Shown: piece after piece, positions 2,688 to 55,639 of the stretch
Position numbering within the stretch: the stretch's first letter is position 1
Layout of the letters: the number at the start of each line of letters is the position of its first letter
Notes under the pieces: model-generated
What the model saw: the letters and a program-made list of their open reading frames with translations, nothing else
Told to the model about the DNA's origin: nothing
Databases searched by the model: none
Assembly: GCA_030374765.1 (NCBI GenBank)
Contig: JARGXX010000013.1
Span: forward strand, 744,001-808,000
Length of the DNA stretch: 64,000 nt
Direction of reading: 5' to 3'
Origin: Agarophyton chilense
Taxonomy: Eukaryota > Rhodophyta > Florideophyceae > Gracilariales > Gracilariaceae
Program-made: the position numbers and the translations under genes

Positions 2688-2700
2688 TCACCCCCTTCTC
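2688..2700 (-). promoter_or_regulatory. polypurine tract of element A
   Basis: In element sense the sequence directly before the 3' LTR is GAGAAGGGGGTGA, the expected position and composition of the plus-strand DNA primer for reverse transcription. Confidence 0.75.
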
Positions 2701-8642: not shown

Positions 8643-8797
8643 ACGGGCTACAACTTTGTAGTTGAAGCGTCCTATTTTGAGGACGAGGTCCTGTTGCGGC
8701 GTAACAACTTCTGCACACTTGTCTAATAGACACTTGGTAACGATTTCGTCACCTTCGTCTCTGATATCCGGAGTTTTAGAAGAGGAGACTTGGGCCT

Positions 8798-9091
8798 CTA
8801 AGTTCGGGGGACGTTTCCCTCAGCTTGGGGCTCAGCGTTGTCCTTGCGAAGGACCTGGGGTTGCGCGGACACCGCGCTAGGTCGTAGGGCCTGGTATCCT
8901 CTTCGTGGAGGCGTGAGTCCTGCCACGTAGTAGACCATCGCCGGCATCCTTGCCGCTGTCTCTGGAGAGGCCTCTATTATACGCTGTCGAGCCTGCGCTC
9001 GCATGGCCGGAGTGATCCACTCGCAATCAGCGACCACGTGGTCGGGATTGGCGCACAAGTAACAAGCTCCGTAAGCTTCCCGTCGCGGCGC
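8798..9091 (-). CDS. gag nucleocapsid segment of element A, after an in-frame TAG
   Basis: Same frame as the upstream gag ORF, separated from it by one TAG at 9092-9094. It encodes a perfect zinc knuckle, CYLCANPDHVVADC (CX2CX4HX4C), then the stretch that leads to the frameshift site. In B and C the equivalent knuckle is continuous with gag. Either the TAG (CAG TAG context) is a single C-to-T nonsense mutation, or it is read through. Stop at 8798. Confidence 0.75.
   Translation of the reverse strand, partial: APRREAYGACYLCANPDHVVADCEWITPAMRAQARQRIIEASPETAARMPAMVYYVAGLTPPRRGYQALRPSAVSAQPQVLRKDNAEPQAEGNVPRT
8813..8819 (-). promoter_or_regulatory. -1 frameshift slippery heptamer, gag to pol, element A
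   Basis: Minus-strand GGGAAAC read as G GGA AAC in the gag frame (the GAG GGA AAC codons), five codons before the gag stop. This is the canonical X XXY YYZ form. A -1 slip enters the pol frame, which is open from here to 4797. A downstream stimulatory fold was not assessed. Confidence 0.75.
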
Positions 9092-14783: not shown

Positions 14784-14788
14784 AGGGA

Positions 14789-17700
14789 GTGTCCCCTTCG
14801 GGAGAGGCGTCCTCAGAGTTGAGGCTGACGACGCCCGAGGCGCCGATGCCTCGCTCCCCGGTGAAAATCCTGACAAGGAAGGACACAGCAGACGCGGACT
14901 CTAAACACCTCGGTGTTTTGCGTCGACCGTGGATACGGATTAGAAATAACCGGATCCCGGATAGAGTCTTGGTAATGGCCAAGCGTAACTACAAGATTTA
15001 CGCTGACCTTGGTCTGCACACGCAGTTTATGGTGAGATATCTTACTGTCCTGGATACAGCTGCTGGGCCGAACTTTATTGTGGAATCGGTTTTACCCCCG
15101 CCATTGCGGTCACCCATCCGTTCTGAAACGGTACCCGACGTCTCAGACGCCAATAACAACCCGTTGAAAACGGTTGGTGTGATCGACCTGGTCGTCAGGC
15201 TAGGGCGGATGGTGGTTAAACTAACTTTTATTGTGTGCCGCTCGCTGGCCGCGCCAGTTATACTGGGATGTGACTACTGCGACAGGTTTGTCGACGCCAT
15301 CCGCCCACGCCTTAAGCAGGTGGAACTTGAGGACGGATCGACCGTCCCCATTGTTCGTCAACCGCTGAAGCGGGCATCGAAGAAACACGTTCCTCTACAT
15401 GCTGCGCAGGAACCCACACCGGCGAACCGGGATTCTACGAAGCTACGCGTTGCCTCGTCAGTCACCATACCCCCGGAGAGCCAGGTTATGGTTTCAGTCA
15501 ATTCCCGTCAACACGGTCTTCGGGTTGTTCAGCCCTTGCCCTCGTTGTACGAGAAATTTCAGTTAACCGTTGCGAACGGAATCGTGCAAGTCACGCCGAA
15601 TTCCCCTTTCAGGGTGTTGGTTGCCAATCTGGGAAAAGCTCCCCAGACCCTGGCAAAGAACCAAGTCATTGGGTCTGTGACGCCGCACCCGCTCGCGATG
15701 CTCCCTACAAAGGTGACGGCTGCCGAAGTACTCGGAATAACTCCCTCTACCGAGGATGGTCTCCCGGTATCCGGTGCAGAAACCTCCGGGAGGCACAGCA
15801 GTTGGCGCTCGATAAAACCGTCAAGACGGATGCATTTCCGACCTCGTCGGTTCCCACACCTGACACCAGGGCACAGCCTACGAGCTACGATAAGATAGAC
15901 CCGATCAAGGCCCTCGAGGACCTGGACCTGAGTCATGTACCGGTCTCACACCGGGACTGCTTACGCGGAATGCTACGCGAGTTTACCACAATGTGGGACG
16001 GCTCACTGGGTGAGATCCATACAACCGAACATTGGATAGACTTGCTACCGGACGCACGTCCGGTTGTACAACCCCCTTACAGGGCGGGACCGAAAGCTCG
16101 GGAGGAGGAAGAATTTCAGGTGGACAAGATGCTCCGTGCTGGAGTCATCGAGCCCGCCCAATCTCCTTGGGCTTCACCGGTGGTGCTGGCCCTCAAGGCT
16201 GACGGCACGTGGCGGTTTTGCATTGACTACCGCCGCCTCAATGACGTCACCGTGAGGGACACCTACCCGATTCCGCGCATGGACGAGTGTATAGACTCGC
16301 TCGGGGACGCTACCGTGTTTACGGCTCTGGATGCTAACTGGGGCTACTGGCAAGTCCCAGTCCGGGAAGAGGACCGAGACAAAACCGCGTTTGTTTGCCA
16401 CTCGGGTTCCTACCGCTTCAAGCGGATGCCGTTTGGTTTAACCAATGCACCGGCCACCTTTCAAAGGGCAATAGACATACTGATGTCGCGTTTCAAGTGG
16501 CGCACGTGCCTTGTCTACTTGGACGACATCATTGTCTTTTCCAGAAACCTGGACGATCACCTGACCCACGTGCGGGACGTGATGACCGTACTGCGAGACG
16601 CAGGAATAACCCTCAAGTTGAGGAAGTGCGAGTTCTTCACCGACACGGTGAAGTATCTCGGGCACGTCATCCGTCCAGGACGGTTAATGATCGAACAAGT
16701 TCGTATCAAGTCCCTCTGCGAGGCGAAGGAGCCCCGTACCCAAACGGAGCTCCGATCCTTTTTAGGTCTGGTCAACGTCTATCGACGGTTTATACCGAGT
16801 TTCTCGGATATCGCCGCTCCGCTAAACGCGCTACTGCGGAAGGGCCAGCCAACAAAGCTTGCGCCATTTACCACCGATCAGTCGGAATCTTTTCGCTCCT
16901 TGATTAAGGCAGTTACGACAGCTCCCATCCGATCCTTGCCCAAACCTGGGCTTCCCTACTCCATCAACACCGACGCCAGCGACCACCAGGTGGGCGGCGC
17001 ACTGTTCCAAACCACCCCCCAGGGGGAACGCAAACCAATTGGCTATTGGTCCCACACGCTGAAAGTCCACGAGCGCAACTACTCGGTCTCCGAGAAGGAG
17101 TGCCTCGCAGTGGTCTGGGCGCTATCCACTCTGCGCCCATACCTCATGGGCGTTCATTTCACCGTGTACACGGACCATGCCTCGTTGAGGTGGCTGCTGA
17201 ACAATCGCGGATCCTTCTGGCCGCTTAATGCGGTGGCGCCTCCGCTTAGCAGAATTCGACTTCGAGGTCGTCTACAAGAAGGGTGTCCAGAACACCCAAG
17301 CAGACGCCCTCTCTCGATTACCTACGACAGGTGAAGCACTTGCCGACCCGGAGGTCGACGAGATCCCGTGCTTTACCTTGGAAGGAGAAACACCGACGGA
17401 GTCGGATTGGCCCGAAACCGGGAAAGACACCATGGAAATGGATGAGCTACTCGCAGCGCGCGAGAATGAAACACTCGTACCCGGGACCTTTGTACCCATC
17501 TCCACCGAGCAGATGATCCGAGAACAGTTCGGCGACCCGTTCTGCACGCGCATACGGGCCCGCCTAAACGGTGGAGAGGACCTCCCGTTCGAGGTAAACG
17601 ACATCGGTTACCTCGTCCGGACGGTGGACCACCGATCCCAGATCGTGGTCCCCCACACCCTGCAAACCAGGGTGCTCCACCTCTCACACTACCCGACCCT

Positions 17701-20062
17701 CGGGGGACACTCCGGTGGGAGAAAACTTTATCTAACCCTGCGAAGGGATTTTTATTGGCCCGCTATGGCGGTTGATTGCTACGCTACGGTGCAGTTCTGC
17801 ACCCAATGCCCAAAGAACCGGGTGAAACTCCGGAAGCACTCCAAACGGATGAAGCTTTTCCCCGCAAGGGCGCCCCTCGAGTTTGTCGCAATCGACATTC
17901 TCGGGCCTCTACTCAAGACGCGCAAGGGAAACAAGTTCCTCTTGGTTATCACTGACCGCTTTTCGAAGCTGGTGCGCACCGTACCATTACGGAAGATCAC
18001 CGCTTTCACGGTTGCGAACGCCTTTGTTACGCACTGGGCGTTCGTTTATGGCCCTCCGATAGAGGTTCTATCCGATAACGGTAAGCAGTTCGCCTCTAAG
18101 TTATTTCAGGACGTCTTCCGCATCCTCGACGTCAAGAACCTGTTTACTACCACCTACCACCCGCAAACAAACGGGCAGGTGGAACGCTTCAACCGCACCC
18201 TACTCGCGTCGCTACGCTCCTACGTATCCGATCACCCAATGACGTGGGACATTTATTCTGATGCTATCACCTACGCCTACAACACGCAGGTTCACCGGAC
18301 AACCGGTCTGAGTCCCTTCGAGCTTGTGCTCTCCAGGACACCCCCGCCAGTGGCGGTCGAACCCCAACACAGGGTCAACTCTTTCCCATCCGTGGGTCAA
18401 TACCGCTGCAAGTGTAAGAACTGGCTTACCAAGCACGTACCGGTCGCCCGGAAGTCCATGGAACGTGCCCAGGCCGCCTACAAGCGGGATTTTGATAACC
18501 GCTTACGCGGAACACTACCGGCTCCGCCCGAGCCGGGAACCTACGTGTTCGTTCGCCGGGATTACTACAACCCCCGGACCGACAAGCGTCACAAGCTCTC
18601 GCCTGTCGCTGAAGGTCTGTTCCGGGTCGTGTCCTCCCTCCCCGGCACCGTGGTGGTGGACAAGAACGGCGACCACGAACGTCTTTCACAAGACCGCATC
18701 GTAGCCGCCCCACCGCCGCAGGCGGAAAACGCATCAGCCCCCGTCGAAACGGCCTCGGATACTACGGGTACAACGGTGGCACCACGCCCCGCCGTGGCAC
18801 CGCACCCCTCACGGGGTCTCTCCGATATACCGACTTTATCGGAACCACCGGCAGTGCCGGAAACACCTGGCCCTCGCGGCCAGCTACCCTTACGGGCGCC
18901 GTGCAGCGGTATTTATACCCGCCATGCGGTTAGTCCACCATCACCCGTCGCTCCGTCTAAGGAGGGGGAGGGGACCCGCTCAATCGCGGAAGCATCGCCG
19001 TCGCAACGGAAGTTTAACCGGACACCCCGGGCAAAGCCCCCGAGCGGGCAACCGGCATCGTCGCCGGACGCCAATCCGCTCCCGCGGGACGCGGCTGTCA
19101 ACCCGACCGCCACGCAACCCCGCAAGGGGAACCAAGGCGCTCGAAGACCCGAAGCCGGGAAGCGAGACCCTACGGACGCTCCGCATCGCGTGGAAGCAAC
19201 TGAGGGCTCCCCGCACATTCGCGGTCGCACACCGAGCGTTTCGGTCGATACCGGTACTCCGGCGGGCGCTACGCAAGCAGGTCTAGCGAGCCACTCCGTT
19301 GAGAACGGTACGAACCCCATGGGGGAAAAGAGGCGCGACGACAAGTCGAAAACCGCCTCCCTTGCCGAACAATCGGAGCCAATCGTCCGCGACGGTCCGA
19401 CCACCCGTCCTCAAGGTCACGTGACCCGGGCGGGAGATCGGACCAATGGGCACCCGGCATCCCGGTCATTGGCTGACAGCCACCCCGCGGAGGCGGATCG
19501 CCGGGACGGTGAATCACTCACCGCCCACGGCGCACCGCACAGCGGAAACTGCCCACCAATGGGAACGCCGCATGCCGCAAATCAAGCGGAGGCCTCCGGC
19601 GAACCGTCACCAAGACGGAAGGACCCCCGCAAACTCGCGATAAGAGCGGACTTCAGGGAAGCCCCTACCGCCCAGCGGAAACACAACCCGGCCGCGCCGG
19701 CAACTTCCGCGAAGCGGTACGGCAGCCCCGGCAACCCGGCAACAACCACAGAGCGGAATGACAAACCGGGTGACCCGGAACAGGCGACGACGAGCCCAGC
19801 ACCACGTGGCGCTGAGGCTCGGGTCACCACCACCCGGCAAGGCCGGCAAGTTTACGTGCAGGAGTACGTCCTCGACCGAATCGTCGGACATAGCTACGAT
19901 GAGCACGGGGTGCTCCAGTACCGGACCCGCTGGTATGGATACGGGCCGGAGTGGGACACCCCGGAGCCCATCGAGCACCTCCCGCGCTCCGCGGTAATGC
20001 GATACCACCGCCTTGCGGGGACCGCACTCCCAGCCACGCTGGTAAACGCCCAAGAGGGATAA
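14789..20062 (+). pseudogene. pol: pol polyprotein of element B, frameshifted twice
   Basis: The frame is open to about 15800, moves to another frame until about 17215, then returns. Protease appears as VLDTAAGPNFI, where the usual D-T-G is D-T-A, so the active site is altered. RT has YLDDIIVFS, but conserved neighbours are changed (DANWGYWQ where C has DANSGYWR; LALKADGTW where C has LVPKPDGSC). RNase H follows, with TDASDHQVG. Integrase is complete: HLSHYPTLGGH and CTQC zinc finger, then AIDILG, SDNGKQF and GQVERFN. After it comes a linker of about 300 residues rich in Pro/Ala/Thr/Arg. The chromodomain is at the C-terminus (EYVLDRIVGHSY, TRWYGYGPEWDT). Expected length is near 1750 residues. 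Frameshifts and the protease change make it non-functional as it stands. Confidence 0.92.
18958..18970 (+). promoter_or_regulatory. internal polypurine-tract-like motif, element B
   Basis: TAAGGAGGGGGAG, identical to the 13-mer at the 3' PPT of element C and to two internal copies in C. It lies in the linker between integrase and chromodomain and encodes KEGE. It is a candidate central plus-strand primer. Confidence 0.45.
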
Positions 20063-20437: not shown

Positions 20438-23039
20438 TCAGGCATCACGCATGGCGGTCACATCACCCGAGATCTCGGAAGGGCGAAGCCCCACCTCCCG
20501 AAGGAAGCGCGCGATGACCTCGCCCCGCTCCGCGCCAGCGGCAGTTGCGGGCGGGCCCGCCACCGATGGAGTCGGATAGGAATCCGTTCGCACGGCATCA
20601 GCAGCCCCGGATGGAGCCGCACCACCGTATTCAACGGACCCCTCACCGGCCTCGCCGGACTCGTCATCCTCCATCGGAGCGTAACCCGAATCCTCCGGTT
20701 CGTTGTCGACCATCGGGTCACCATCCGCATAGCCGCGGTAATAGTCGCTCGAGTCGACATACCCTCGCAGGTGGTCGGCCGGGACTTCACGCGGCGCATG
20801 CCGGTTGGCTTCCGCTTCCTCGCGGCTGATCTCGTGGTACTCCCAGGGGTCGAAGTAGATGAAATCCCCCGCTAGCGCGGTATTCCTCCCGAATCTGGGG
20901 CCAGACCCGCGACGCGGTGGAATGCGTTGGGAGTTCTCCAGCGGGACCTCATCCCACTGGACCCCCTCCACAAAGTCGAGGAGGCCCAGCATCTCTTCTT
21001 CGTTCGCCTCGCCCCCGAGGGGGATGCGCATGTCCAAACGGCGGATCGCAGCCCGCACACGCGGTGGCACGTACCACAATCGGTATTGGTCGTACGCCTC
21101 AGCGAGGATAAAAGCCGCAGTGCGGACGGCCCATTCGCTTACCACAACGGACCACCACCCCGACTGGGGATCGTTCAAGAACGACGACCCTACTGTAGGA
21201 CAATGCCCCCAAGGGGGAAAACCTACGAAGACGTCCGGATCTTCCTCTCACGAGGTAGCCGGCGCGGTAGAGCCCTCCCAGGGATCGGCGCGCAATGCCG
21301 GGTGTAAGCCGGAGCCGAACCGTCGCAACGGGCGCAGGGAGGCTGAAAGAAGCCGAGAATATCCGCCGAAGCGGTGCTTGCGTATCCTCTGAGGAGGCAA
21401 AACCCACGAGAGTGGCGAGCGCGACAGGTGTCAGTGCGAGCCGCAAGAGCGGGAATTGCCCAATGAAGGGGAGGAAAAGGGAAGGAAAATGGGAACGGAG
21501 GCAAGAGGGCGAGGTTGACCACGAGTCGCAAGAGGGGACTCGGGAATAGCCGGCACTGCCGGGTGTAGCAAACCGTATACACGGGCGGAACCACGAAAGT
21601 AAGAATCGATACCCAACACACGAAGGCTGCTTGAACGTCCAAGGGGGTTGGGAAGCCGTGCACCACGAGAAATCCCTCCGTAAGGAGTTGTATATCCGCG
21701 CAGGCGGTTCGACCCAGAGCCAAGATCTGGAAGACCAAGATCACCCTTGTTGGGGAGACTTTACTGGACCGGCGGCCACGAGGCCGGCGGCCTAAGTACT
21801 GTAGTCACCGTAGAATAGAATAAATAAAGTCTATCCTAAATAGCTAAATGTCCGTCTAACAAAGGGGCCAATCTGGCGGCCACGTGTCGCGCGGGCGCCG
21901 CGGCCACGTGTATGGCACCCGGTCCCGCCGGTGCATCACCGGCGTCCCGGGTGTCGCCGTGAAAACCGATTACTCCTACTCATAACGAGGTTGCACGCCG
22001 GAGGCTCCGGAAAAACTTAAGTCCCCAGAAACCTCCCTGGAGGACGTTGCTCTTCACCTACATAGGTGAAGACTGGGGGCAGCTCAATGAAGCAACCCCA
22101 GCACGCCTCCAAGGAGGACCACCAGTCTGGGAGACTGACGTACCGACCACGTCGGTGAGCAGGCGCGATGCTCTCAATCTCCGTGTTCTGGTACGGTACG
22201 AAATACCCGGTCCGGGCCCGCCAACGCCGCTCATCGCGGATGAAGTTCTGAAGGAAGTTCGAGCGCGACTGCCGCGGTTGGTAGCGGAACTCTGCCCGAA
22301 GAATCGGTCGTACACAGCAAAGGGCTCCTTGCCGAGCGATCGGTGTGCCCCTCCAAGCGAGGGTTTCCAATCCGTTAAGACGGTCGCAGTACGACATTTC
22401 CCCGCGAGTGCGGTAAAGGTGGACGTCGAATTCGACCTCTGGCGGTATCGGGAACTCGAAAGGCGCCCGATGGTGCCTGAGATAAGCGATCCACACAAGC
22501 GCGGCCTGAGCCTCTGCAGAGGATTCACCGCGTCGGCGGAGTATGTGGTGTACCGGGATGGCGATGCGATCACGCCAATCCCATGACATGGTCACCACGC
22601 CGGGCAGGTCGCCCGGGAGCATCTCCGAATTATCGGTGTAGGATTGGATCAAATCCTCGTCGCGGACAGCCAATGGGTGAAACCAAGGCGCATACCGCAA
22701 CATCGCGGAGCCATACCGAGTTCTCGGATTTGCACCCACAAGGGCGTCGTAGATCGGCCACTGCCGTGGGTCCGCCTGTCCGCGAAAGCGGGCGCCAATA
22801 CGGCGGTCTTCGTACGCGAGGTTGGTAACATACCCAGGGTGGGGCGCGGACCGGAAGCCGGTGGAACCGCCAAGGGCGGGAGTCGCGGATGTGTTATGAC
22901 GGTCGGGGTTGGACATGGTGCGTGTTGGTGTGCTGTGGTTGGAATCGGATGCGAAGAGCGTGCGTGGGATCCTTGGTGAAGGTGTGATGGTTTCCGGAGA
23001 CCCGGTGTCGGACGCGCTCTTATCATGACGAGCTGCCAT
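20438..23039 (-). pseudogene. antisense ORF of element B, split by a solo LTR
   Basis: Starts at the ATG at 23039, 47 bases from the 3' LTR. It runs on the minus strand to 22057, is interrupted by the inverted solo LTR (21194-22056), and resumes at 21193 to a stop at 20438. Across the insertion the frame lines up with the antisense ORF of C: left part ...ELPPVFTYVG, right part LNDPQSGWWSV, against ...ELPPCIYYIG and MHDPNSGYWAL. Conserved blocks: APWFHPLAVRDEDLIQSY, PILRAEFRYQPRQS, WYVPPRVRAAIRRLDM, FIYFDPWEYHEI. No transmembrane span or known enzyme motif was recognised. Before the insertion the product would have been near 580 residues. Confidence 0.85.
21194..22056 (-). repeat. solo LTR of family B, inverted, inside element B
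   Basis: 863 bp. It is the reverse complement of the B LTR, beginning TGTAGGAC and ending GCTCTTCA on the plus strand. It is flanked by a perfect 5-bp target duplication, cctac (21189-21193 and 22057-22061). With no internal region attached, it is a solo LTR left by recombination after another family-B copy inserted into this one. Confidence 0.93.
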
Positions 23040-23085: not shown

Positions 23086-23949
23086 TGAAGAGCAACGTCC
23101 TCCAAGGAGGTTTTTGGGGACTTAAGTTTTTTCCGGAGCCTCCGGCGTGCAACCTCGTTATGAGTAGGAGTAATCCGTTTTCACGGCGATGGCCGGAACG
23201 CCGGTGATGCACCGGCGGGACCGGGTGCCATACAAGTGGCCCCAGCGCCCGCGCGACACGTGGCCGCCAGATTGGCCCCTTTGTTAGACGGACATTTAGC
23301 TATTTAGGATAGACTTTATTTATTCTATTCTACGGTGACTACAGTACTTAGGCCGCCGGCCTCGCGGCCGCCGGTCCAGTAAAGTCTCTCCAACAAGGGT
23401 GATCTTGGTCTTCCAGATCTTGGCTCTGGGTCGAACCGCCTGCGCGGATATACAACTCCTTACGGAGGGATTTCTCGTGGTGCACGGCTTCCCAACCCCC
23501 TTGGACGTTCAAACAGCCTCCGTGTGTTGGGTATCTATTCCCACTTTCGTGGTTCCGCCCGTGTATACGGTTTGCTACACCCGGCAGTGCCGGCTATTCC
23601 CGAGTTCCCTCTTGCGACTCGTGGTCACCCTCGCCCTCTTGCCTCCGTTCCCATTTTCCTTCCATTTTCCTCCCCTTCATTGGGCAATTCCCGCTCTTGC
23701 GGCTCGCACTGACACCTATCGTGCTCGCCACTCTCGTGGGTTTTGCCTCCTCAGAGGATACGCAAGCACCGCTTCGGCGGATATTCTCGGCTTCTTTCAG
23801 CCTCCCTGCGCCCGTCGCGACGGTTCGGCTCCGGCTTACACCCGGCATTGCGCGCCGATCCCTGGGAGGGCTCTACCGCGCCGGTTACCTCGTGAGAGGA
23901 AGATCCGGACGTCTTCGTAGGTTTTCCCCCTTGGGGGTATTGTGCTACA
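23086..23949 (+). repeat. 3' LTR of element B
   Basis: 864 bp, TGAAGAGC to GTGCTACA, uninterrupted. It shows the empty site for element A (a single cctcc near 23801-23805). It is dense in 4-6-bp stems with 3-4-nt loops, including CCGC-ttcg-GCGG. Confidence 0.93.
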
Positions 23950-42464: not shown

Positions 42465-43380
42465 TGTAGAGCAATGCCCAGTTAGGGGATACTTGAAGAT
42501 GCAACTCATAGAATGAGGATTGAACCCTCCGAGGGTTATGACTATGATCCGCTCTAAGGTGTGCTGAGGTGGCACTGTTTTCTGGTTAGAGTTCGCCTAT
42601 GAAGTGACAATTTGGATGGCCCATGGTTGGATTGGCCCCGTGATACACGTGGCTTAATTTTGGCACCCATTTTCGGATATTTGTTAGAACGTTCGACTTT
42701 TGGGCCCTGGCAGTGGGATCTCCACGTGTATGGCCCTGAGCAGGTGTGCACTACTGTAGAGTTTAGTTAGTGGGCCCTACTTAGGGAGATGAGATCTAAC
42801 AGTCCGAAGCTCAAAGTAAATGGTAACCAAGGTTGGTCTTCGATACCTTTAGAGGTTCTTCGTCGCCATCGTTTCGGCCTTACAACCCGGAACGGGCTCT
42901 GGTTAGCAACTCCTGCGTAGGGACACGACTCCACTTGGAGAGTGCCCACGTTTGGGTTCCGTGCAACCACCTCCTTGGGACCGCTCAGACGACCCGCGTG
43001 CACGATACCCCGTGGGGGTTCTGCTTACTTGTTGCGTGCTTTTTGTGTTTCCTTTCGAGGACAGGTTTTCGCCCCTGTATTGGGTTTCTTTTGTTGTTTC
43101 GCCCCTTTTCTGGTTCTCGGGTCCGGTGCCTGTTAGTGCCCGACCCTCGCCCCGTTTTTCCTCTTCGCCGGATTTTCCCCCATTCATTGGGATACCCATA
43201 CCCATTCCCGATCCAACGGTTTCTACCCCTCGCCTTTGTCGGTACTGCCGGAATCTCCCGTGGGAGTTACACCCCACACTACGGGTGGTACGGAGGGCTC
43301 TGTCTCTGAGTCTGCCTCCCCCAGGGAGCAAGGCTTCGAACACCTTGAGAGCACTTCCCGTCGCCGGGTTTTGCTCCACA
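42465..43380 (+). repeat. 5' LTR of element C
   Basis: 916 bp. An early hairpin AACCCT-ccg-AGGGTT is at 42523-42537. Near-identical to 53302-54218. Overlapping open frames within it recur in both copies and are not considered genes. Confidence 0.93.
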
Positions 43381-43607: not shown

Positions 43608-45638
43608 ATGTCGCCGTTTACCCGTGGTTCCAGGACTGGATCGAACCGTCAAGCGGATTCAGTGCCCCCGGCCCCACCTAGGTCGAAAAGCTCAATTCCC
43701 GAAGGTCGGAACGATTCCGGTATCGATCCGGACACTCGGAGAGCACCCTCAGTGGTTTCAGGTCCTCGAGAGGTCGTGGCTGTGGGCCCAGCTCCAGTGG
43801 TGGAGACCCCCTCAGCAGCACCCCGAAGTCGGGCCGACCCTGAATTACAGCGCCTGGAGACTCGAATCGATATCGCCCACGCGGCTCACGTCGAGCTCCT
43901 TCAGGAGGTTACTACCCTCCGCCTCAAGGTGGAGGACGCCCAGGTGCGGGGAGTCGCCGACGACCTTCGTACCCTGAGGAGGGATGTGAACTCCCTTTTG
44001 GAAAGCTTTGGTACCCCTGGGGTCTTTATCCAGGAGTACCGGAGCCTCGTGGAGGAACACCGCGTGCAAGCGGAACGCTTCCGAGCTCGGCTGGACACCC
44101 TCGAGGCCATTATCCGTATGGACGGAGACACAGAAGCCTCGAAGGATAAACCCGAAGTTTCGGAAGACGAAGAACACCGCTCCGCTAAATGGGACCGCTG
44201 CAAGTCCAAGAAGAGGGTTCACCTCCAAGAGGATTTATCGGATTCCGATCCCAATCGCTCGTCATCAAGTTCGTCCTCCGAATCTTCGGATAGTGAAGAT
44301 GGACGCCGGTCATCCCAGGCGACTCGGTCGAAGGCTACTTACACCTCTCAAGGGGCAATCCGTACCTGGAAGAAGGGTAGGAAACACCTTGGATTAAGGG
44401 AGCTGAAGCCGACGAATCCTCTCTATCGGAGGCTGCTATCGTACCGCTATTACCGGTTGGATAACCCTTCGGGAGATCGAACATCCCGCGGAACGGGTAA
44501 GGTCAAGGACTACATCAAAAGGCTGAGCATCACCCTACAGAAGAGGGAGTTCACAGGAACAGACCCAATTCTGGTGCTCGATTTCCTTGCGAGGTTCGTC
44601 CAGGAGGCTGACATCCTCGGTATGAGTGAAGCGCAAGCGTATCTTGCATTACCCTATTTCTTAAAGGGAATGGCTGAAGACCAGTTCAACTCCGTCCGTG
44701 GATCATCCCGAGCCTCGAAAGGGGGAGTCACGTGCTGGCCCGAAGCGGTGCAGTACCTCTTGAGGTCATACGCTACTGGAAATGCGATTCAGGAAGCAAT
44801 CCTTGCATTAAGGGATACGCGGCAGAAGCTGATGGAAACCGAAACGGTGTATTCAACTCGCTTGAATAAAGCGTTTCACCGATGCGGGAATGTATTCCCC
44901 GCCTACGAGAGATGCACCATGTTTGTGGATGGTTTGGACCCCTCGATAAGGGCATTGGTTGCCCGACATCGGGAAGAGAAGCGCAAGCTGACCTACTTGG
45001 AACTGGTTCAGTACGCCCAGGCTGAGGGGGATACTCTCCGTGCCCGGCAGAACCGAAAGAGTCGGCCGACACGTGCACTCCTCGCCGATGGAGGTAACTC
45101 GTCTTTGTCACTCGCAGGAGGCCCTGCCCCTGTGGGGGTCAATGATAACATTCACTTCATGGGAAGTAACCCCGAATCTATGGGTACGTCTGAGTTGCCG
45201 TCGACATCCGCTCCGACTACGGATGAAGACCCTGCGCTCTATACCCACGGACGGAGGGTGCCAGCCGCATCGCTACCTTTTGCGAATACCGCTGCTCGGT
45301 TCTCTCGCCCCGGATGGAGGGATACAGCACCACGTCGCGTGGATTCACGTCCACAACCGAACCCGGCAGAGCTGACTTGCTATTTGTGTTACCTCCGTGG
45401 TCACAAAGCACCAGACTGCACATTTCCCCTGCGGGAGGGTTCACGAATTATCGCTCAGTACGAGGCTCTGACCCCTGAGGAGAAAGCTCGAGTCCCGAGT
45501 AGGTCCTATGAGGAACAAAGGATACTCCGAGCTCACCTTGCTGACAGGGATCAAGAACTTGTACCCGCGAACGGGGAACAACCGGTCCCCTTCGAGGCAG
45601 CTGCACCGAATTCGGTGGGGTCCGCTTCGAAAAACTAA
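43608..45638 (+). CDS. gag: gag polyprotein of element C
   Basis: 676 residues, intact, from the ATG at 43608. Layout follows element B: Ser/Pro-rich start; coiled-coil-like helix around 85-180; charged Ser-rich linker; capsid-like domain with TCWPEAVQYLLRSYA and CTMFVDGLDPS; zinc knuckle CYLCYLRGHKAPDC (CX2CX4HX4C) near 590. It ends at TAA 45636-45638, directly after the slippery heptamer. Confidence 0.93.
   Translation: MSPFTRGSRTGSNRQADSVPPAPPRSKSSIPEGRNDSGIDPDTRRAPSVVSGPREVVAVGPAPVVETPSAAPRSRADPELQRLETRIDIAHAAHVELLQEVTTLRLKVEDAQVRGVADDLRTLRRDVNSLLESFGTPGVFIQEYRSLVEEHRVQAERFRARLDTLEAIIRMDGDTEASKDKPEVSEDEEHRSAKWDRCKSKKRVHLQEDLSDSDPNRSSSSSSSESSDSEDGRRSSQATRSKATYTSQGAIRTWKKGRKHLGLRELKPTNPLYRRLLSYRYYRLDNPSGDRTSRGTGKVKDYIKRLSITLQKREFTGTDPILVLDFLARFVQEADILGMSEAQAYLALPYFLKGMAEDQFNSVRGSSRASKGGVTCWPEAVQYLLRSYATGNAIQEAILALRDTRQKLMETETVYSTRLNKAFHRCGNVFPAYERCTMFVDGLDPSIRALVARHREEKRKLTYLELVQYAQAEGDTLRARQNRKSRPTRALLADGGNSSLSLAGGPAPVGVNDNIHFMGSNPESMGTSELPSTSAPTTDEDPALYTHGRRVPAASLPFANTAARFSRPGWRDTAPRRVDSRPQPNPAELTCYLCYLRGHKAPDCTFPLREGSRIIAQYEALTPEEKARVPSRSYEEQRILRAHLADRDQELVPANGEQPVPFEAAAPNSVGSASKN
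45629..45635 (+). promoter_or_regulatory. -1 frameshift slippery heptamer, gag to pol, element C
   Basis: GAAAAAC read as G AAA AAC in the gag frame, directly before the TAA stop. The first base deviates from strict XXX, but tandem slippage of AAA-AAC by -1 is of the known type. The -1 frame is open here and leads into pol. Confidence 0.6.
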
Positions 45639-46611
45639 ACTTGGGAGTGTCCCCTGCGGGAGGGGCGTCTTCTAAGCCGGAGTTGAAGACGCCCGAGGCG
45701 CTCCAGCTTCGCTCCCCAGCTGTGACTATCCTTTCAAGGAGAACGGCTGACACCGACGTTAACTCGGGATACTTTAGTGTCCTTCGTCGCCCGTGGATAC
45801 AGTCCCATAATCTCCGTATTCCGGATCGAGTTATGGTAATGGCCAAGCGGAATTATAAAGTATTCGCCGACTTTGGCCTGTCCAACCAGTTTATGGTTCG
45901 TCAAATATCTGTCCTGGATACAGGAGCCGCTCCTAACTTAATTCATGTTGAATTGTTACCCCCGCTGCTCCGGGTCCAATTTCGTACCGGTCCACGTTTG
46001 GATATCGCCGATGCGAACAACAACCCGCTACGGACACTCGGTACAAATTCCCTCATGGTGAGGTTAGACTCCTATCTCGTTCAGCTAGAGTTTATTGTAT
46101 GCAAGTCACTTGCAGCACCAGTCATACTGGGTTGTGACTTTTGCGACCGCTTCGTGGAAGCCATCCGTCCTCGGAATAGAACTGTGGAACTCGAAGACGG
46201 GTCTACGATCCCAATCGTTCGTAAACCTTTAGAGGGAGTAGCGCGAACACGCGTTCCTCTCCCTGACGCACAGGAATCTGTGAAGAAGGACCCGGTGTCT
46301 ACATGGGTAAAGGTTGCGAAGTCAGTGGCTATCCCGCCAGAAACCCAGGTTTGGGTCACAGTTGTTACCAAGCAAATTGGTGTGCATGTGGTACAACCGA
46401 ACCCGTCTCTGTATACGTGGCGTCAACTCGCCCTTGCGAATGGGGTTGTCTCCGTGGAACCGGATAAACCTTTCAAGGTTTTGGTAGCCAACTTTGGAAA
46501 GACAACGCAGCATTTGGTCAAACACCAGATCCTGGGTTCTGTTCTTCCACACCCGCATGCGGTCGTACCTACAAAGATCTCTATCGCAGAGGTCCTTGGT
46601 GTGGCCGACCC

Positions 46612-46624
46612 TAAGGAGGGGGAG
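46612..46624 (+). promoter_or_regulatory. internal polypurine-tract copy 1, element C
   Basis: TAAGGAGGGGGAG, identical to the 13-mer of the true 3' PPT at 53288-53300. It encodes KEGE in pol, between protease and RT. Confidence 0.45.
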
Positions 46625-49600
46625 GACACTGCCGAAATCGCGGAAGACGGTGAGCGTACGACTGCAGCTCCACACGCTGAACACTTTAAACCTCAGAAGG
46701 TTACGGCCCCTATCACAGGAGCAGACCAGACGGATCCTGTTCAGGAATTGGAGAAATGGGATCTCAACCATGTACCTGCATCTCACCGGGAGAAGCTGAG
46801 GCACATGCTTCGTGAATTTACCCCCATGTGGGATGGTTCCCTTGGAACTATTGGGATTACAGAACACCGCATCGACTTATTACCGAACACTCGGCCTATT
46901 GCCCAACATCCTTACAGGGCTGGACCGAAAGCTCGGGAAGAGGAGAAATCTCAGGTGGCGAAGATGCTTAAAGCGGGCGTAATTGAACCTTCCCAGTCTG
47001 CTTGGGCCTCACCAGTGGTGTTAGTTCCGAAACCGGATGGATCGTGTCGTTTCTGCATCGATTACAGACGCCTGAACGAGGTAACCATTAAGGATGTGTA
47101 CCCGATCCCTCGGATGGACGAGTACATCGACTCCCTTGGGAGCGCTACTGTTTTCTCTACCCTCGACGCCAATTCGGGCTACTGGCGAGTCCCTATTAGG
47201 GAGGAAGATCGAGACAAAACGGCTTTCGTGTGTCATCAAGGACTTTTCCGATTCCGGAGGATGCCTTTTGGGTTGACAAATGCCCCCGCAACGTTTCAAC
47301 GGGCGATAGACATTCTGTTGGCTCCCTTCAAGTGGAGGACGTGTCTAGTGTATTTAGACGACATTATTGTCTTCTCCAACAACCTGGATGACCACCTCGA
47401 ACACGTCAAGAACGTAATGAAGATACTCCGCGACGCGGGAATCACCTTGAAACTCAAGAAGTTCGAGTTTTTCACCTATTCGGTTAAGTATCTGGGTCAT
47501 ATCATCCGTCCCGGACAGCTTTCAATCGATGAAGTACGAGTGAAATCCTTGAAGGAAGCAAAACACCCGAAAACTCAAACGGAGTTGCGATCCTTCTTAG
47601 GTCTGTGTAACGTGCATCGCCGATTCGTCCCGAACTTTGCGGATATTGCCACCCCCCTCAACAGGCTCCTGACGAAGGAACAACCAGTTGAACTGGAACC
47701 TTTTGGCGACGCGGAAGCGTCTGCCTTCACGGCACTGGTGAATGCCGTAACATCACCGCCAATCTTGGCTCTACCCAATCCTGGGCTCCCTTACGAAGTG
47801 GACACCGATGCTAGTGCAAACCAAGTAGGGTGTGCACTGTTCCAATCCTCTGAGGATGGTGAACGTCACCCTATTGGGTACTGGTCATGTTCCCTAAAAG
47901 TCCATGAAAGGAACTATTCGGTCTCCGAGAAAGAATGTTTAGCCGTTGTGTGGGCCTTAGCTACACTTCGCCCCTATCTGATGGGTACTCGTTTCAAAGT
48001 CCATACGGACCACGCATGCTTGCGTTGGCGCCTGGAGATCTCCGAACCCTCGGGCCGCCTTATGCGATGGCGTCTCCGACTGTCGGAATTCGACTTTGAG
48101 ATCCTGTACAAGAAAGGGAAGCTGAACACTCAAGCTGATGCACTATCCCGCTTGGGAACCACAGCGGAAACGGAACCCTACGAGGACGATGACATCCCAT
48201 GTTTTATCGTATCGGACCTCGAGGGAGGAGCTCAACCGCTGACGGATGATGTTTGTGACGATATACTTGTCAACGAGAGTCTGGATTCGCCGACCGGCTC
48301 TTTTATACCTATCTCTCCAGAGGAGATGATACGCGAGCAACAGCTCGACCCATTCTGTACACGGATTCGGGCTCGCCTCAACGGAGGATTTCAGTTGCCT
48401 TTCGAGGACGACGATCAGGGTTACCTAATCAGGACCGTTGGACATCGCCCGAGGATAGTGGTGCCGCACACCCTACAACAGAGGGTATTACACCCCACTC
48501 ACTATGCGAAGGTTGGCGCCCACCCGGGGGAAGAAAACTGTACCTCACGTTGAGAAGGGACTTTTACTGGCCGGCAATGGCATTCGATTGTTACGCCGTC
48601 AGACGGGCCTGCGCCAATTGCGCCAAGAATGACGTCCAACTTCGGAAGCACTCTAAAAAGTTGACGCTGTTCCCGGCACGGGCTCCACTCGAATTCGTGG
48701 CCATAGACATCCTAGGGGAGTTTATCAGGACGCCCCGAGGTCATCTGTATCTGCTTGTCATTTCTGACAGATTCTCTAAGCTAACGAGAACTGTGCCGCT
48801 GAAGCGGATCACCGCCGCTACCGTCGTGCAAGCGTTCGTGACCCATTGAGTGTTCGTATATGGACCGCCGGTGCAGTTGTTATCCGACAACGGAGGGCAA
48901 TTCGCATCAAAGTTCTTTCAGGATGTATGTCGAATCCTTGATGTAAGGAATTTATTTGTTACTACGTATCACCCTCAGGGGAATGGCCAGGTGGAGAGGT
49001 TTAACCGCACGATACTCAACGCTTTGAGATCGTATGTTGCGGATCACCCCAAAAATTGGGACTTGTACACAGACGCTATCACGTATGCATACAACACCCA
49101 GGTACATCGGGTTACATCGTTATCCCCATTCGAACTGGTACTGTCGGGGAGACCGCCGCCGGTCGCCATCGAGGCTCAACCGACGCTGTCGACGTACCCG
49201 TCACCGGGATTGTACCGAGAAGCCTGGAAGGAGTGGCTTACGAAGATGGTGCCGATAGCCCGGAAAGCAATGGACAAAGCTCAACGCGCCTACAAGAAGG
49301 ACTTTGACAATCGGGTTCGCAAACCTCTACCTCAGGTGGAGCCCGACGACTTCGTCTTCCTTCGAAAGGAATACTACAATCCTAAAAAGGAACGTAGGCA
49401 CAAGCTTTCGCCAATTGTGGACGGACCCTATCGTGTGGTTTCTGTAGACCCGGACACGGTGGTATTGGATATCGCTAACCGCCACGAACGGATCTCCAGG
49501 GACCGCATCACACGAGCGCCCAACCCAAATGTGGAAGTGTTGTCGGCACCAACGCCCTCTACAGGGGATGATTCAACGGAAGCTAACCCGTCAAGCGGAG

Positions 49601-49769
49601 ATTCGAACACCCGCCCCGTTATACTTCCGCACCCGGAACGTGGTTTAACCGACCTACCGGAAACTTCGGATACTCCCGAACCTGGGCCCGCTCCCTCCAG
49701 GGCGCAGTCAACGAACTCTTACAGAGTTACTCCCCCACCGGAGGTAATCAAGCCTCCTGGCTCTCCGCC

Positions 49770-49782
49770 TAAGGAGGGGGAG
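49770..49782 (+). promoter_or_regulatory. internal polypurine-tract copy 2, element C
   Basis: Same 13-mer, in the linker between integrase and chromodomain. This is the same relative place as the internal copy in element B (18958-18970). Confidence 0.5.
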
Positions 49783-50962
49783 GAGGACTTAGTTCCTTCG
49801 CAGGACGATATTTCGGCGTCAGCCAGTCGCCCTAACAGGGAATCTAGTTCTCACAGTGAGACGGTGAGCCCGACCTAGCCGGAGACAGAGAAGTCACAAC
49901 CCCAGCGTATGCGTAGCGACATCACCGCCGAACCAGCCGAGCACGACGTCAGAAAAGATGACGAAACCCCGCCTAGGGAGAGTCGTGTGGAGAACTCCGC
50001 ACCCGGAACGCCTACAGAGCCGACGATCACCCGCCGCCGCGGACGAGACACTGAGGTGTCGCACACTCAAACCCCGCTTTCTCGGGAACGAGCTTTGTCA
50101 GCGGACCCGCACGGGGAAGATCTCGACGACGAGGTTGACCAAATTTGGCTCTCCGTTATGAAATGGGAATAGGAACTCCTATGGAGACACTGGAACCCTC
50201 AGGAATGGGAAAGAAATGAGTGAGACCCGTCGGGGACAGCTCCGGAGAGTGCTAGCGCGTGTCGAAAGCGCCACCTCACATCCGCTTGCGGAGTGGCAAC
50301 CGGCGCCCGTGCATTTATGTGGCACACGTCGAATGGCACCGAGCCAATCAAAAGGCTCTGACGACCAACCGTCGCGCAAACCGCCTCCATCGCACGGCGC
50401 GTTGCACGGGAGCAACCTTCGTCCCCGTAGCTCGGGTTGACCTTGAAGTCTTACCCCCCTGAGATTGGAGACGCTACCGCGTCGCGGTTTCTCAACCGTC
50501 ACAAAATCTAAGAACACCGTTGTTATCGGGAAGATCTCCGCTTTAAGAAGAATCCAAAACTGGGCCCTTTTGACTACGTAGACGGAAGTTACAACGTAGC
50601 CCACAGGCCACTCGGCGCCGTTTGGACGAAGTGCTGAGACCCGCTCGCAACACGGAAAAGAACCCACTGGGGCGTGTCTAAACCCTACGTTGACACCCTC
50701 AAGGGAACTAGAGCGTTCCAAGATGGAAGAGAAGCCCGAACAGGGAAAAGTGTACCCGCAGGAATTCGTTATCGATCGCATCGTGCGTCACATCTACACC
50801 CCCGAGGGAGAAGTCCGCTACCAAGTCCGATGGTACGGATTCTCGCCTGATGAGGATACAGTGGAACCCATTGAGCACCTTCCGAGGTCTAAGGTTTTAT
50901 CCTATCACCGACGCGCTCGGGTAACCTTGCCTCCAAGTCTTGATCGTGCCCAAGTCGGGTAA

Positions 50963-51363
50963 GCCACCACGGGAACTGGTGTGGATGGGACCTCGAGGTG
51001 AGGAAGATGTTGGACCTCTGAAGAGGAATTGAGGAGAGTATCCCGAAGAACACGTATTGAGAGGGAATGTCTACTGGCCCTCGGCCTAGCGCCGTTAACC
51101 AGGGAACACAGCACCGGTTATCGGGACAGTTTATGATGAAAAAAAGGAAAAGAAGACCCACGAAGTGGAGAATAAGATTAAGAAGAAGATTGGACCCTAG
51201 AAAGGGAAGAATATGAAGACGAAGATGAAGAAGATCCTAAGAAGGAAGAAGAAAAGAAGTAGAAGTTAAGATCCTAGGAACGAAGAAGAAAAGAAGTTAT
51301 GCAAATATCAGAAGTTTACTATTGTCGCCAAGCTATGGACTCCACAATTGCCCGAAGGCGGAA
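50963..51363. other. purine-rich spacer between convergent pol and antisense ORF, element C
   Basis: No gene. From about 51130 to 51300 the plus strand is almost all A and G (runs such as AAGAAGAAAAGAAGTAGAAG). This lies between the stops of pol and the opposing antisense ORF. Confidence 0.6.
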
Positions 51364-53220
51364 CTACGGAAAGCCCGAGGAGGGACCCGCCCCAACGTTG
51401 GGATTCTGACCCTGATGGTACGCCGAGGCGAAAGCCAACATCTGGCTCACATCTGTCATACCCGGGGGAATCGGAATGCCCGCGTTCACGAGGCCTTGTC
51501 GCACACTATCTGCTTGCGGAGTGGCAACCGGCGCCTGCGCAAGGGTGTTCACACCCCACCCGGGGGGAGCAGATGGACCGCCACCGGATGCATTCGCCGC
51601 CGCAGCTGAGGTCGTTCCCACTGGTTGGAAGGGTGCAGACGGCTCCACAGGGAGTACTCCACTAGGAGCTGGCATGTCTTTATCCAACGCTGGATCGTCC
51701 AGGTCTACTGGAGGCTGGTACTCGTAGTCGTCGGTATAAATGAACCCCGTCGGGTGTCCCACCGGCATCGGTCGAGGCGAGTCAATCAGCGCCCGTGCTT
51801 GCGCCGCGCTGATGCGAACCCGTTCGAAGGGATTGTAATAGACCCAGTTACCGGAGCCCGGATCGTACCGGCCAGGAGACTTGTCTCGCGCGGATCCTTC
51901 CCCTGCCGGCTGATTTTCCACTGGAACTCGATCCCATTCGGTGTTGTCGATCTCGTCCAAGATTGGATACAGGTCCTGCACGTTGCTGCCCGAACCCAAC
52001 GCTGGGACAAGGTCGATCTGACGCATGATGGTCCGTAGCATCGGAGGAATATACCAGACACGGAAATGGTCATGTGCATCCCAGAGGAGGTGCGCCGCTA
52101 CACGGGCTGCCCACTCGGCTGCAACGAGGGCCCAGTATCCCGAGTTCGGGTCGTGCATGAAACGAGACCCGATATAGTAGATGCATGGGGGCAGTTCAGC
52201 AAAGCACCCTCGAGGGACCTCGACATTACTCCACCAAGCTGGAAGGGGCACGAATCGCCCAACCTTCGCCGTGTTACGGATAAGCTCCAGTTCCACGTGA
52301 GGATACGGGACAAGGAACCCGAAACGGGTGCGCGAGCGGCGCTCGAAGCGCACGCGTCGATCGAACCCATACTGGGTAAACTGCCGTTGAAGGTACCTGA
52401 ATTCAGCCCGAAGGATGGGACGACTCCATTGAAGCATATCTTCTCGGAGAGGAAAACTCGGTCCGCGGAACTTGGCTTCGGGAAAGGCTGCCAGGTTATC
52501 CCCGTAGGAGACCTCACCGTACGTGCGGTAATAGGCGACATCGAACCCGTACTCCGGGGGAACCATATGGTCAAAGCGTGACCTCTCCAATCGCTGGTAG
52601 GCCAGAGCCGCCATCGCTGCGCGCGCCTTATCCAGGGACTCCCCGCGACCGCGGTATAGATACTGAGGCTCTATGGCTACCCGCGCCCTCCAATCCGGAG
52701 AACGTACAACCTCGACAGGTAAACCACCCGGCAATAAGCCGTCCTCCACGTAGGAGTCGATGAGCTCATCGTCGCGAACCGCTGTCGGATGGAACCACGG
52801 AGCGCGGGAATATATCACCGGATCGGTAAGGGGACTCCACCTTCGAAAGGATTCGTTTGAGATCCAACCTCTGGAGTTTGCTACCAAGGGCATCGCATGA
52901 GCGGAGTTCCACGCCACCGCGTTAATGTCCAAATCCTCCTGAGGATGTCGGTTTCTCGCCGAGGCGGAAGGTTCGGTACCTGACGGAGCCGCATACAAAC
53001 CGGAGAAATATCCACCCTGCTGGGGAGTTTCGTTGTCCGCCGGCGCGGAGGCCGACGGCCCCGAGAGTGGGTTGATGACGTATGGGTTCATTCCCTTGAG
53101 AGGGCTGGTTGAGATTGCTGTTGCGAGAAGTTGCTTATCGCCGAAAGTCGGAGGAGTAGAAGAAAGTTGTACCGATGTGCCGGTTTTGTGGCGATCATCA
53201 GAAGTGGTGAAGGACCCCAT
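51364..53220 (-). CDS. antisense ORF of element C, intact, unknown function
   Basis: 618 residues from the ATG at 53220 on the strand opposite gag-pol; non-ATG codons extend the frame to 53259. Homologous to the antisense ORFs of A and B. Blocks in order: APWFHPTAVRDDELIDSY, GGLPVEVVRSPDWRARVAIE, PILRAEFRYLQRQF, RTRFGFLVPYPHVELELI, WWSNVEVPRGCFAELPP, DPNSGYWALVAAEWAARVAAH, WYIPPMLRTIMRQIDL, WVYYNPFERVRISAAQARAL. The last 130 residues are Pro/Ala/Gly-rich. It is rich in Arg, Trp, Tyr and Pro, with no signal peptide, membrane span, zinc finger or protease motif that I recognise. A TATATATA sequence (53232-53239) lies just upstream of the ATG in this orientation. It could be made from an antisense promoter near the 3' LTR. 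Confidence 0.85.
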   Translation of the reverse strand: MGSFTTSDDRHKTGTSVQLSSTPPTFGDKQLLATAISTSPLKGMNPYVINPLSGPSASAPADNETPQQGGYFSGLYAAPSGTEPSASARNRHPQEDLDINAVAWNSAHAMPLVANSRGWISNESFRRWSPLTDPVIYSRAPWFHPTAVRDDELIDSYVEDGLLPGGLPVEVVRSPDWRARVAIEPQYLYRGRGESLDKARAAMAALAYQRLERSRFDHMVPPEYGFDVAYYRTYGEVSYGDNLAAFPEAKFRGPSFPLREDMLQWSRPILRAEFRYLQRQFTQYGFDRRVRFERRSRTRFGFLVPYPHVELELIRNTAKVGRFVPLPAWWSNVEVPRGCFAELPPCIYYIGSRFMHDPNSGYWALVAAEWAARVAAHLLWDAHDHFRVWYIPPMLRTIMRQIDLVPALGSGSNVQDLYPILDEIDNTEWDRVPVENQPAGEGSARDKSPGRYDPGSGNWVYYNPFERVRISAAQARALIDSPRPMPVGHPTGFIYTDDYEYQPPVDLDDPALDKDMPAPSGVLPVEPSAPFQPVGTTSAAAANASGGGPSAPPGWGVNTLAQAPVATPQADSVRQGLVNAGIPIPPGMTDVSQMLAFASAYHQGQNPNVGAGPSSGFP

Positions 53221-53287
53221 TGGGAGAGAAGTATATATAGTGACCGGAAAGCGAGACACCCGCGGCTCGGAATGTTCTTCCTCGTCT

Positions 53288-53301
53288 TAAGGAGGGGGAG
53301 A
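53288..53301 (+). promoter_or_regulatory. polypurine tract of element C
   Basis: TAAGGAGGGGGAGA directly before the TG of the 3' LTR. Confidence 0.8.
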
Positions 53302-54218
53302 TGTAGAGCAACGCCCAGTTAGGGGATACTTGAAGATGCAACTCATAGAATGAGGATTGAACCCTCCGAGGGTTATGACTATGATCCCCTCTAAGGTGTG
53401 CTGAGGTGGCACTGTTTTCTGGTTAGAGTTCGCCCATGAAGTGACAATTCGGATGGCCCATGGTTGGATTGGCCCCGTTATACACGTGGCTTAATTTTGG
53501 CACCGATTTTCGGATATTTGTTAGAACGTTGAACTTTTGGGCCCTGACAGTGGGATCTCCACGTGTATGGCCCTGAGCAGGTGTGCACTACTGTAGAGTT
53601 TAGTTAGTGGGCCCTACTTAGGGAGATGAGATCTGACGGTCCGAAGCTCAAAGTAAATGGTAACCAAGGTTGGTCTTCGATACCTTTAGAGGTTTTTCGT
53701 CGCCATCGTTTCGGCCTTACAACCCGGAACGGGCTCTGGTTAGCAACGCCTGCGTAGGGACACGACTCCACTTGGAGAGTGCCCACGTTTGGGTTCCGTG
53801 CAACCACCTCCTTGGGACCGCTCAGACGACCTGCGTGCACGATACCCCGTGGGGGTTCTGGTTACTTGTTGCGTGCTTTTTGTGTTTCCTTTCGAGGACA
53901 GGTTTTCGCCCCTGTATTGGGTTTCTTTTGTTGTTTCGCCCCTTTTCTGGTTCTCGGGTCCGGTGCCTGTTAGTGCCCGACCCTCGCCCCGTTTTTCCTC
54001 TTCGCCGGATTTTCCCCCATTCATTGGGATACCCATACCCATTCCCGATCCAACGGTTTCTACCCCTCACCTTTGTCGGTACTGCCGGAATCCCCCGTGG
54101 GAGTTACATCCCACACTACGGGGTAGAACGGAGGGCTCTGTCTCTGAGTCTGCCTCCCCCAGGGAGCAAGGCTTCGAACACCTTGAGAGCACTTCCCGTC
54201 GCCGGGTTTTGCTCCACA
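53302..54218 (+). repeat. 3' LTR of element C
   Basis: 917 bp, TGTAGAGC to GCTCCACA. It is one base longer than the 5' copy through a G-run change near 54120. It is followed by the target duplication and the resumed Tnp2-like frame. Confidence 0.93.
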
Positions 54219-55115: not shown

Positions 55116-55639
55116 CCTCAGAATGCTAGTTTAGGCGTCAAAAACGGACGAACTAAAATGGACAGAAAACCCATGAATTTTTTCGTATTTACAGTTCTAT
55201 ATTTTTTCAAAATAAATTCACTCATTCGAAGTTGCTAGTTTTTAGGGAAAATGAAGTGGCAAAAAGCTGTATAATCCGAAATTTTTGCGGGTCCCAATCA
55301 GGTGTGCAAACTATATCATTATGCATTTATTTAAAATTTTCTCTACTCTCACTCATGTTCGCCTAGTAGAAAATGAAGCCTGAAAATAGCAATAAATATC
55401 AAAATAGAAATAGAAATCTCGCACATCGGCGGCACAAAAGTCAAAATCCCAAATTACCACATTGTAGGTGTCAGCGCCCGCAGTCCGTCTCGACTCCTCC
55501 CCACAGCCCTGCATCACGTGAAATGCATGCCCCACAACTCTCCCCATATAATGCTTCACCGCACCCCATGCGCCATAACCTCTACGCCCCCTGCTTCTTT
55601 TTTCTTCTTCCGCATCAACGCGCCCCCGCATTTCACACC
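55116..55639. other. AT-rich to C-rich transition, no gene
   Basis: 55130-55370 is AT-rich without frames. From about 55400 the plus strand becomes strongly C-rich, which marks the start of the next transposon block. A boundary repeat was not found. Confidence 0.4.

What the first reader, a model, noticed from the sequence alone, without database searches (positions are those of the whole stretch)
51364..53220. A conserved protein family encoded antisense to gag-pol in three chromovirus families
Seen directly: elements A, B and C each carry a long ORF on the strand opposite gag-pol, placed between the pol stop and the 3' LTR and convergent with pol (187, 376 and 402 bp apart). The three products share ordered blocks: APWFHP-x-AVRD, PILRAEFRY, E-x-P/W-x-G-x-F-x-E-[IL]-PP-x-x-x-Y-x-G, and W[YW][IV]PP-x-[VL]R. 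Locations are C 51364-53220, B 20438-23039 (split) and A 2792-4610 (broken). LTRs of the three families are unrelated, so the ORF is old and has been kept. Known background: extra antisense ORFs between pol and 3' LTR exist in plant Tat-lineage Ty3 elements. I recognise no similarity to env, gag or any known family. Inference: an accessory protein from an antisense promoter, possibly controlling the element or the host response.
Basis: partly seen in the sequence, partly recalled or inferred. Interest (0 to 1): 0.87.

Follow-up and report, generated by a model that had tools for sequence, protein, structure and literature searches.

The report
Hidden backward gene in algal retrotransposons
Several related families of jumping elements in one genome (likely a red alga) carry the same protein gene, which matched no known family, written backwards relative to their other genes next to one end, and it is predicted to make a helper or control protein for the element.

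Summary
C (51364-53259, minus) is an intact reading frame convergent with pol. B is the same gene split by an inverted B-type LTR (21194-22056). A is a distant, broken relative sharing only the C-terminal half of the blocks. The frame is a true gene family: B and C proteins are 42% identical (E 8e-99) with almost no DNA similarity, third codon positions are saturated, and the antisense frame beats the other five in 10 of 10 family pairs. The genome holds at least five families (A-E); D and E were new here. Copies scored: C 70, D-type 75, B 113, A 39 rows; all but A are capped lists. A pol chromodomain lies convergent beside the gene in 30 of 30 C and 28 of 30 D loci. Five database proteins match, one named (Gracilariopsis chorda). 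No convincing Pfam, PDB, PHROG, NCBIfam or fold match was found, and no Transposase_28 domain. The start is probably 53091, not 53220. Selection within families is weak (C) or undetectable (D). Most likely reading: a trans-acting accessory protein expressed antisense from the 3' LTR side. Antisense accessory ORFs are known in plant and fungal elements; this protein family looks new.

The parts
51364..53091 (-). C antisense accessory gene, likely true extent (575 aa, ATG at 53091); open frame runs up to 53259
53092..53301 (-). Leader between the C accessory start and the 3' LTR; holds TATATATA at about 53231-53240 (TATATA found in 21 of 30 C copies; no TATAA/TATATA-type match in six leaders of the other families) and a sense polypurine tract at about 53287-53301
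53302..54218 (+). 3' LTR of C (97.7% to the 5' LTR)
42465..43380 (+). 5' LTR of C
43608..45638 (+). Gag-like ORF of C (676 aa; 48% to B gag; no Pfam match)
45641..50962 (+). pol of C: RT, RNase H, integrase, chromodomain-like end at about 50747-50959; broken in this copy
22057..22916 (-). B accessory gene, N-terminal piece (likely ATG at 22916)
21194..22056 (-). Inverted B-type LTR that splits the B accessory gene
20438..21193 (-). B accessory gene, C-terminal piece
12672..20062 (+). B gag and pol ORFs, convergent with the accessory gene
23086..23949 (+). B 3' LTR
2792..4610 (+). A accessory gene, broken into three frames (pieces 2765-3574, 3638-3979, 4245-4610)
4797..11116 (-). A pol (4797-8642) and gag (9092-11116), convergent with its accessory gene
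1509..2693 (-). A 3' LTR (other LTR 11221-12405, 99.07% identical); A sits inside the B 5' LTR (788-1508 + 12400-12546)

Best explanation
It is a protein-coding accessory gene on the antisense strand between pol and the 3' LTR of at least five related Ty3-type element families, likely read from a promoter in or beside the 3' LTR to make a soluble protein that would act in trans to support or regulate the element's own replication. Shown: the gene, its convergent position beside pol, and its protein-level conservation. Inferred: the promoter, because the likely start codon lies about 100-210 bases from the LTR edge (edge known in A, B, C; taken from the pyrimidine tract in D and E). Inferred: transcription opposite to gag-pol, separate from the genomic RNA. 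Predicted: a mostly helical core of about 380 residues between disordered flanks, with a short helical C-terminal module. Untested: the activity; my preferred one is nuclear regulation of the element's expression or protection from host silencing.
For: Real gene: in 10 of 10 pairs of families A-E the antisense frame is the best-scoring frame (C-B E 8e-102); the mirror frame comes second in 10 of 10 but holds 12-29 stops; the antisense frame has no internal stop, the other five frames 5-29. Third codon positions are saturated (28-39% identity) while positions 1 and 2 keep 47-70% in 6 of 6 pairs of B-E. Ubiquity: C, 70 scored of 1895 candidates; D-type, 75 of 1644; B, 113 of 1519; A, 39 rows of 39 candidates; 34 places after pairing pieces. 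Position: chromodomain convergent in 30 of 30 C, 28 of 30 D, and in the one E locus. Age: P0001-P0004 and P0005 match; both deep branches (A-type; B-E type) have such a relative. Constraint in C: shared variants per site are lower after codon 56 (76 in 1725 against 20 in 168, p 0.0003), singletons do not differ (p 0.23). Soluble: no clear transmembrane segment after the likely start. Start to LTR edge: C 211, B 170, A about 100, D 168, E 176.
Against: No transcript or protein was seen. Within D, the nonsynonymous to synonymous ratio of shared variants (about 2.1) equals the neutral expectation (2.2-2.9). In C the shared/singleton N/S difference is not significant (p 0.12). The TATA of C is absent from the six other leaders read. 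No family or fold match gives a functional hint. The 60 loci in the polymorphism tests were chosen by protein similarity, which can mimic constraint. The chromodomain was not found beside the gene in L041 and L055.
Confidence: 0.6

Rival explanations
1. Passenger or captured gene: a host or foreign gene taken up once by an ancestral element and carried along, with no role in the element's cycle.
For: No convincing viral or element relatives. D copies show near-neutral variation. The genomic setting of the named relative P0002 is unknown.
Against: A mere passenger would decay; family members and database relatives keep the frame at 23-54% identity to C. The protein searches named no gene of known host function, though only candidates sharing exact words were scored.
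Confidence: 0.13
2. Structural protein: an envelope-like or particle-associated protein that happens to be antisense.
For: The position after pol is where env sits. The protein is long and conserved. The annotated P0004 has a hydrophobic stretch (2.15) upstream of its aligned methionine.
Against: From the likely start on, the 19-residue hydropathy maximum is 0.93-1.33 in 8 of 9 proteins and 1.63 in E, P0004 being counted from residue 93; P0005 1.02. No gag similarity beyond low complexity. No Pfam gag or env match. It could not be read from the genomic RNA.
Confidence: 0.12
3. Functional antisense RNA: the antisense transcript itself (double-stranded RNA, interference with gag-pol) is what is kept, and the protein is secondary.
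For: Convergent layout; such a role is discussed for plant elements (PMC7264820, parts 1 and 2 of 3 read).
Against: Selection between families is on codons, not on DNA sequence: blastn finds at most 108 bp of similarity in the six pairs of A-D, third positions are saturated.
Confidence: 0.08
4. Mirror artefact: the open frame is a by-product of composition or of coding on the sense strand.
For: GC-rich DNA (0.56-0.62). B has a 411-aa frame on the opposite strand too.
Against: The gene lies outside pol. The other frames carry 5-29 stops and score lower in 10 of 10 pairs.
Confidence: 0.02

Closest known systems
Plant Retand/Tat-lineage antisense ORFs with the Transposase_28 domain (PMC11963269; passages and the discussion section read)
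   Same: Antisense ORF between pol and 3' LTR, present in nearly all recent elements of the lineage, function unknown, regulatory role proposed.
   Different: Those are non-chromovirus elements of flowering plants; 97% of clusters carry Transposase_28. Our proteins do not match it, and the genome has no match over its cut-off.
Maize Grande gene23 and rice RIRE2 antisense ORF (as reviewed in PMC7264820, parts 1 and 2 of 3 read)
   Same: Same slot and orientation; Grande has a promoter upstream of the antisense gene and a nuclear product.
   Different: No sequence comparison was made here; different element lineage.
Boty-like elements of Botrytis cinerea with antisense gene brtn (four passages of PMC8365987, one holding the title in its reference list; mention in PMC7264820)
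   Same: A non-plant element with an additional antisense gene.
   Different: Sequence not compared; fungal host.
HTLV antisense protein HBZ (mentioned in PMC11963269 passages; HTLV antisense promoter in PMC7264820; the rest recalled)
   Same: Antisense gene near the 3' LTR, antisense promoter in the 3' LTR.
   Different: HBZ is recalled as a bZIP regulator; no Pfam bZIP match here.

Membership tests
Antisense accessory ORF (aORF-3R) of LTR retrotransposons | ORF on the strand opposite gag-pol, between pol and 3' LTR | tested here: met
   A, B, C in the window; 30 of 30 C and 28 of 30 D loci convergent with the pol end
Antisense accessory ORF (aORF-3R) of LTR retrotransposons | Present in most copies and conserved like other element proteins | tested here: inconclusive
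   Many copies, but found through the ORF itself; by the pol end of C, 8 of 40 scored places (the window's own included) adjoin one of the 70 copies, both lists being capped (by hand). It evolves faster than pol (B-C 42% against 55-71%)
Antisense accessory ORF (aORF-3R) of LTR retrotransposons | Antisense transcript | not testable with these tools
   No RNA data held
Retand Transposase_28 protein | Match to PF04195 | tested here: not met
   C protein and 0 of 16 accessory proteins; best genome match E 0.05, below cut-off, on contig C115
Chromovirus (Ty3) element | Ty3-type pol with RT, RNase H, integrase | tested here: met
   RT and RNase H over cut-off in A and C, integrase over cut-off in A and B, below it in the C piece; the B RT piece was not scanned but is 71% identical to C
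Chromovirus (Ty3) element | Chromodomain at the integrase C-terminus and chromovirus place in an RT tree | tested here: inconclusive
   PF00385 in A (19.8 bits) and B (21.6 bits), both below the 25.1 cut-off; homologous segment in C, D and E. No RT tree was built, and chromodomain Gypsy elements outside the chromoviruses exist (Ectocarpus, passage of PMC12477816)
Env-like protein | Transmembrane segments | tested here: not met
   Hydropathy maximum at most 1.33 in 8 of 9, 1.63 in E; a simple measure. P0004 was counted from residue 93; whole, it reaches 2.15 at residue 58
Gag/capsid | Similarity to gag or Retrotrans_gag | tested here: not met
   no fold match

The most novel reading that the evidence does not exclude
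Red algal Ty3 elements independently evolved the same design as plant Retand and fungal Boty elements: an LTR-driven antisense gene for a new-fold protein that protects the element from host silencing, with convergent transcription acting as a built-in switch between making the protector and making gag-pol.
Probability: 0.17. Interest if true: 0.85.

Novelty: new variant of a known kind. Interest (0 to 1): 0.6.

Why it matters
Antisense accessory genes are known from plant and fungal elements, but their function and origin are unresolved (PMC7264820, PMC11963269). A third host group with an apparently unrelated protein in the same slot would suggest that the slot, not the protein, is what elements keep reinventing. 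With hundreds of copies, five divergent families and database relatives, the question of what such proteins do becomes testable by comparison, expression and structure.

Full report
What is there. The window holds three Ty3-type elements. A (LTRs 1509-2693 and 11221-12405, 99.07% identical) is inserted in the 5' LTR of B (788-1508 + 12400-12546; 3' LTR from 23086), and C lies at 42465-54218 (LTRs 97.7% identical). A and C carry reverse transcriptase and RNase H, and integrase is found in A, B and (below cut-off) C. The chromodomain is a sub-threshold Pfam match in A and B, with homologous segments in C, D and E. Between pol and the 3' LTR each element carries an antisense reading frame: intact in C, split by an inverted B-type LTR in B, and broken in A.

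Is it real? Yes. C and the B relative L061 share 42% identity over 379 residues; A joins through 175 columns. All six frames of five families were compared: the antisense frame is best in 10 of 10 pairs, and its mirror frame, with 12-29 stops, comes second in 10 of 10 (one search had shown a shortened list for six pairs). On codon alignments third positions are saturated while first and second are conserved in 6 of 6 pairs of families B-E; dN/dS is about 0.3 for C-B and 0.17 for D-E with dS near saturation, and cannot be given for the other four pairs. The region does not overlap pol.

How widespread? The genome (79.8 Mb, 135 contigs) holds at least 70 scored C copies, the window's own included (37 of 70 without an in-frame stop over the match, counted by hand), 75 D-type hits (the 30 fetched were looked at), 113 B hits and 39 A rows, of which five pairs look like two pieces of one copy. 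Except for A these lists are capped, and all were found through the gene itself. L068 is a fifth family, E, 49% identical to D. The pol chromodomain is convergent next to the gene in 30 of 30 C loci and 28 of 30 D loci (not found in L041 and L055), and in L062 and L066-L069; L061 and L063-L065 showed none but have short flanks. L066 and L067 repeat the places of L042 and L033. A separate DNA search with the C pol end and spacer gave 319 candidates, 40 scored; by hand, 8 of the 40, the window's own included, directly adjoin one of the 70 copies. Both lists are capped, so this is no estimate of how many copies carry the gene.

Outside this genome. The database of 5.8 billion proteins gave four relatives of C (36-48% identical), none added by the profile search, and one relative of A (32%). 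Only P0002 is named: Gracilariopsis chorda, a red alga. That the window is from a red alga is therefore likely, not tested.

Start and promoter. P0001 and P0003 begin, and B, D, E and P0004 have a methionine, close to the residue aligned with C methionine 57, at 53091; P0002 is annotated to start further upstream. In 30 C copies, variants shared by two or more copies are 2.7 times denser in the first 56 codons than after them (p 0.0003), while singletons do not differ (p 0.23). This fits a start at 53091. The start codon lies 211 bases (C), 170 (B) and about 100 (A) from the LTR edge, and 168 (D) and 176 (E) from the edge suggested by the pyrimidine tract. TATATA in the C leader is present in 21 of 30 copies but has no counterpart in six leaders of the other families, so the promoter remains an inference.

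Selection within families. C: N/S is 1.86 for singletons and 1.32 for shared variants against a neutral 2.2-2.9; the difference between shared and singleton after codon 56 is not significant (p 0.12). D: 2.25 for singletons and about 2.1 for shared, so no constraint is visible. The loci were chosen by similarity to an accessory protein, which can mimic constraint. The firm evidence for selection is between families.

What the protein is. Acidic overall (pI 4.9-6.4 in nine proteins), with no clear transmembrane segment from the likely start on; P0004 was counted from its aligned methionine, and its annotated upstream part does hold a hydrophobic stretch. The model of the core is mostly helical (pLDDT 70.7, pTM 0.67) and has no match in PDB or BFVD at E <= 0.001. 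Disordered flanks and a short helical C-terminal module follow from the full, low-confidence model. Four of ten C-termini end in a similar Gly-(Ala/Gly)-Gly-Pro-Ser tail (C, P0001, P0002, P0005).

How it likely works. The gene cannot be translated from the gag-pol RNA, so it needs its own antisense transcript; the closeness of its start to the 3' LTR points to a promoter there, as the review reports inside the 3' LTR of HTLV and upstream of gene23 in Grande (PMC7264820). A protein kept for so long within elements, without membrane segments or similarity to gag, most likely acts in trans as an accessory factor. Whether it regulates transcription, helps nuclear steps or counters silencing is open.

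Comparison. The arrangement is known from Grande, RIRE2, Retand and Boty (PMC7264820, PMC11963269, PMC8365987). The protein is not the Retand Transposase_28 protein, and the elements carry chromodomain-like ends, whereas Retand is a non-chromovirus lineage. Whether these are chromoviruses by an RT tree was not tested. I therefore class it as a new variant of a known kind.

Noticed in passing
G000:C5:11344-51086, C78:14284-24824, C68:3138136-3157561: A-type accessory genes recur at exactly 9734-base steps (five on C5, two on C78) and B-type at 9197 bases (three on C68), close to one LTR-plus-internal unit: tandem elements sharing LTRs, or an assembly effect.
   Followed up: no
window 55500-61500: A 6-kb stretch with extreme GC skew (about -0.45) at ordinary GC content, with no tandem repeat reported there.
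   Followed up: partly
window LTR ends at 53302, 23086 and about 2691: The outermost ~16 bases of the A, B and C LTRs are alike although blastn finds no further similarity.
   Followed up: no
L061 412-1644 and L062 352-1584 (minus): In B a 411-aa open frame lies opposite the accessory gene; not listed at 400 aa or more in the A, C, D loci read.
   Followed up: no
C-termini of C, P0001, P0002, P0005: A recurring Gly-Pro-Ser tail ends otherwise divergent accessory proteins.
   Followed up: no
G000:C22:1088450, C1:52873 and C99:640035: Hits at 44% to P0003 with 553-695 aa frames that may be further families; letters could not be fetched.
   Followed up: partly
window 26432-32087 and 62121-62669: Host-type genes: a protein kinase, an ERG4/ERG24 sterol reductase, an F-box-like protein (below cut-off) and an RNA polymerase Rpb1 piece.
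   Followed up: no
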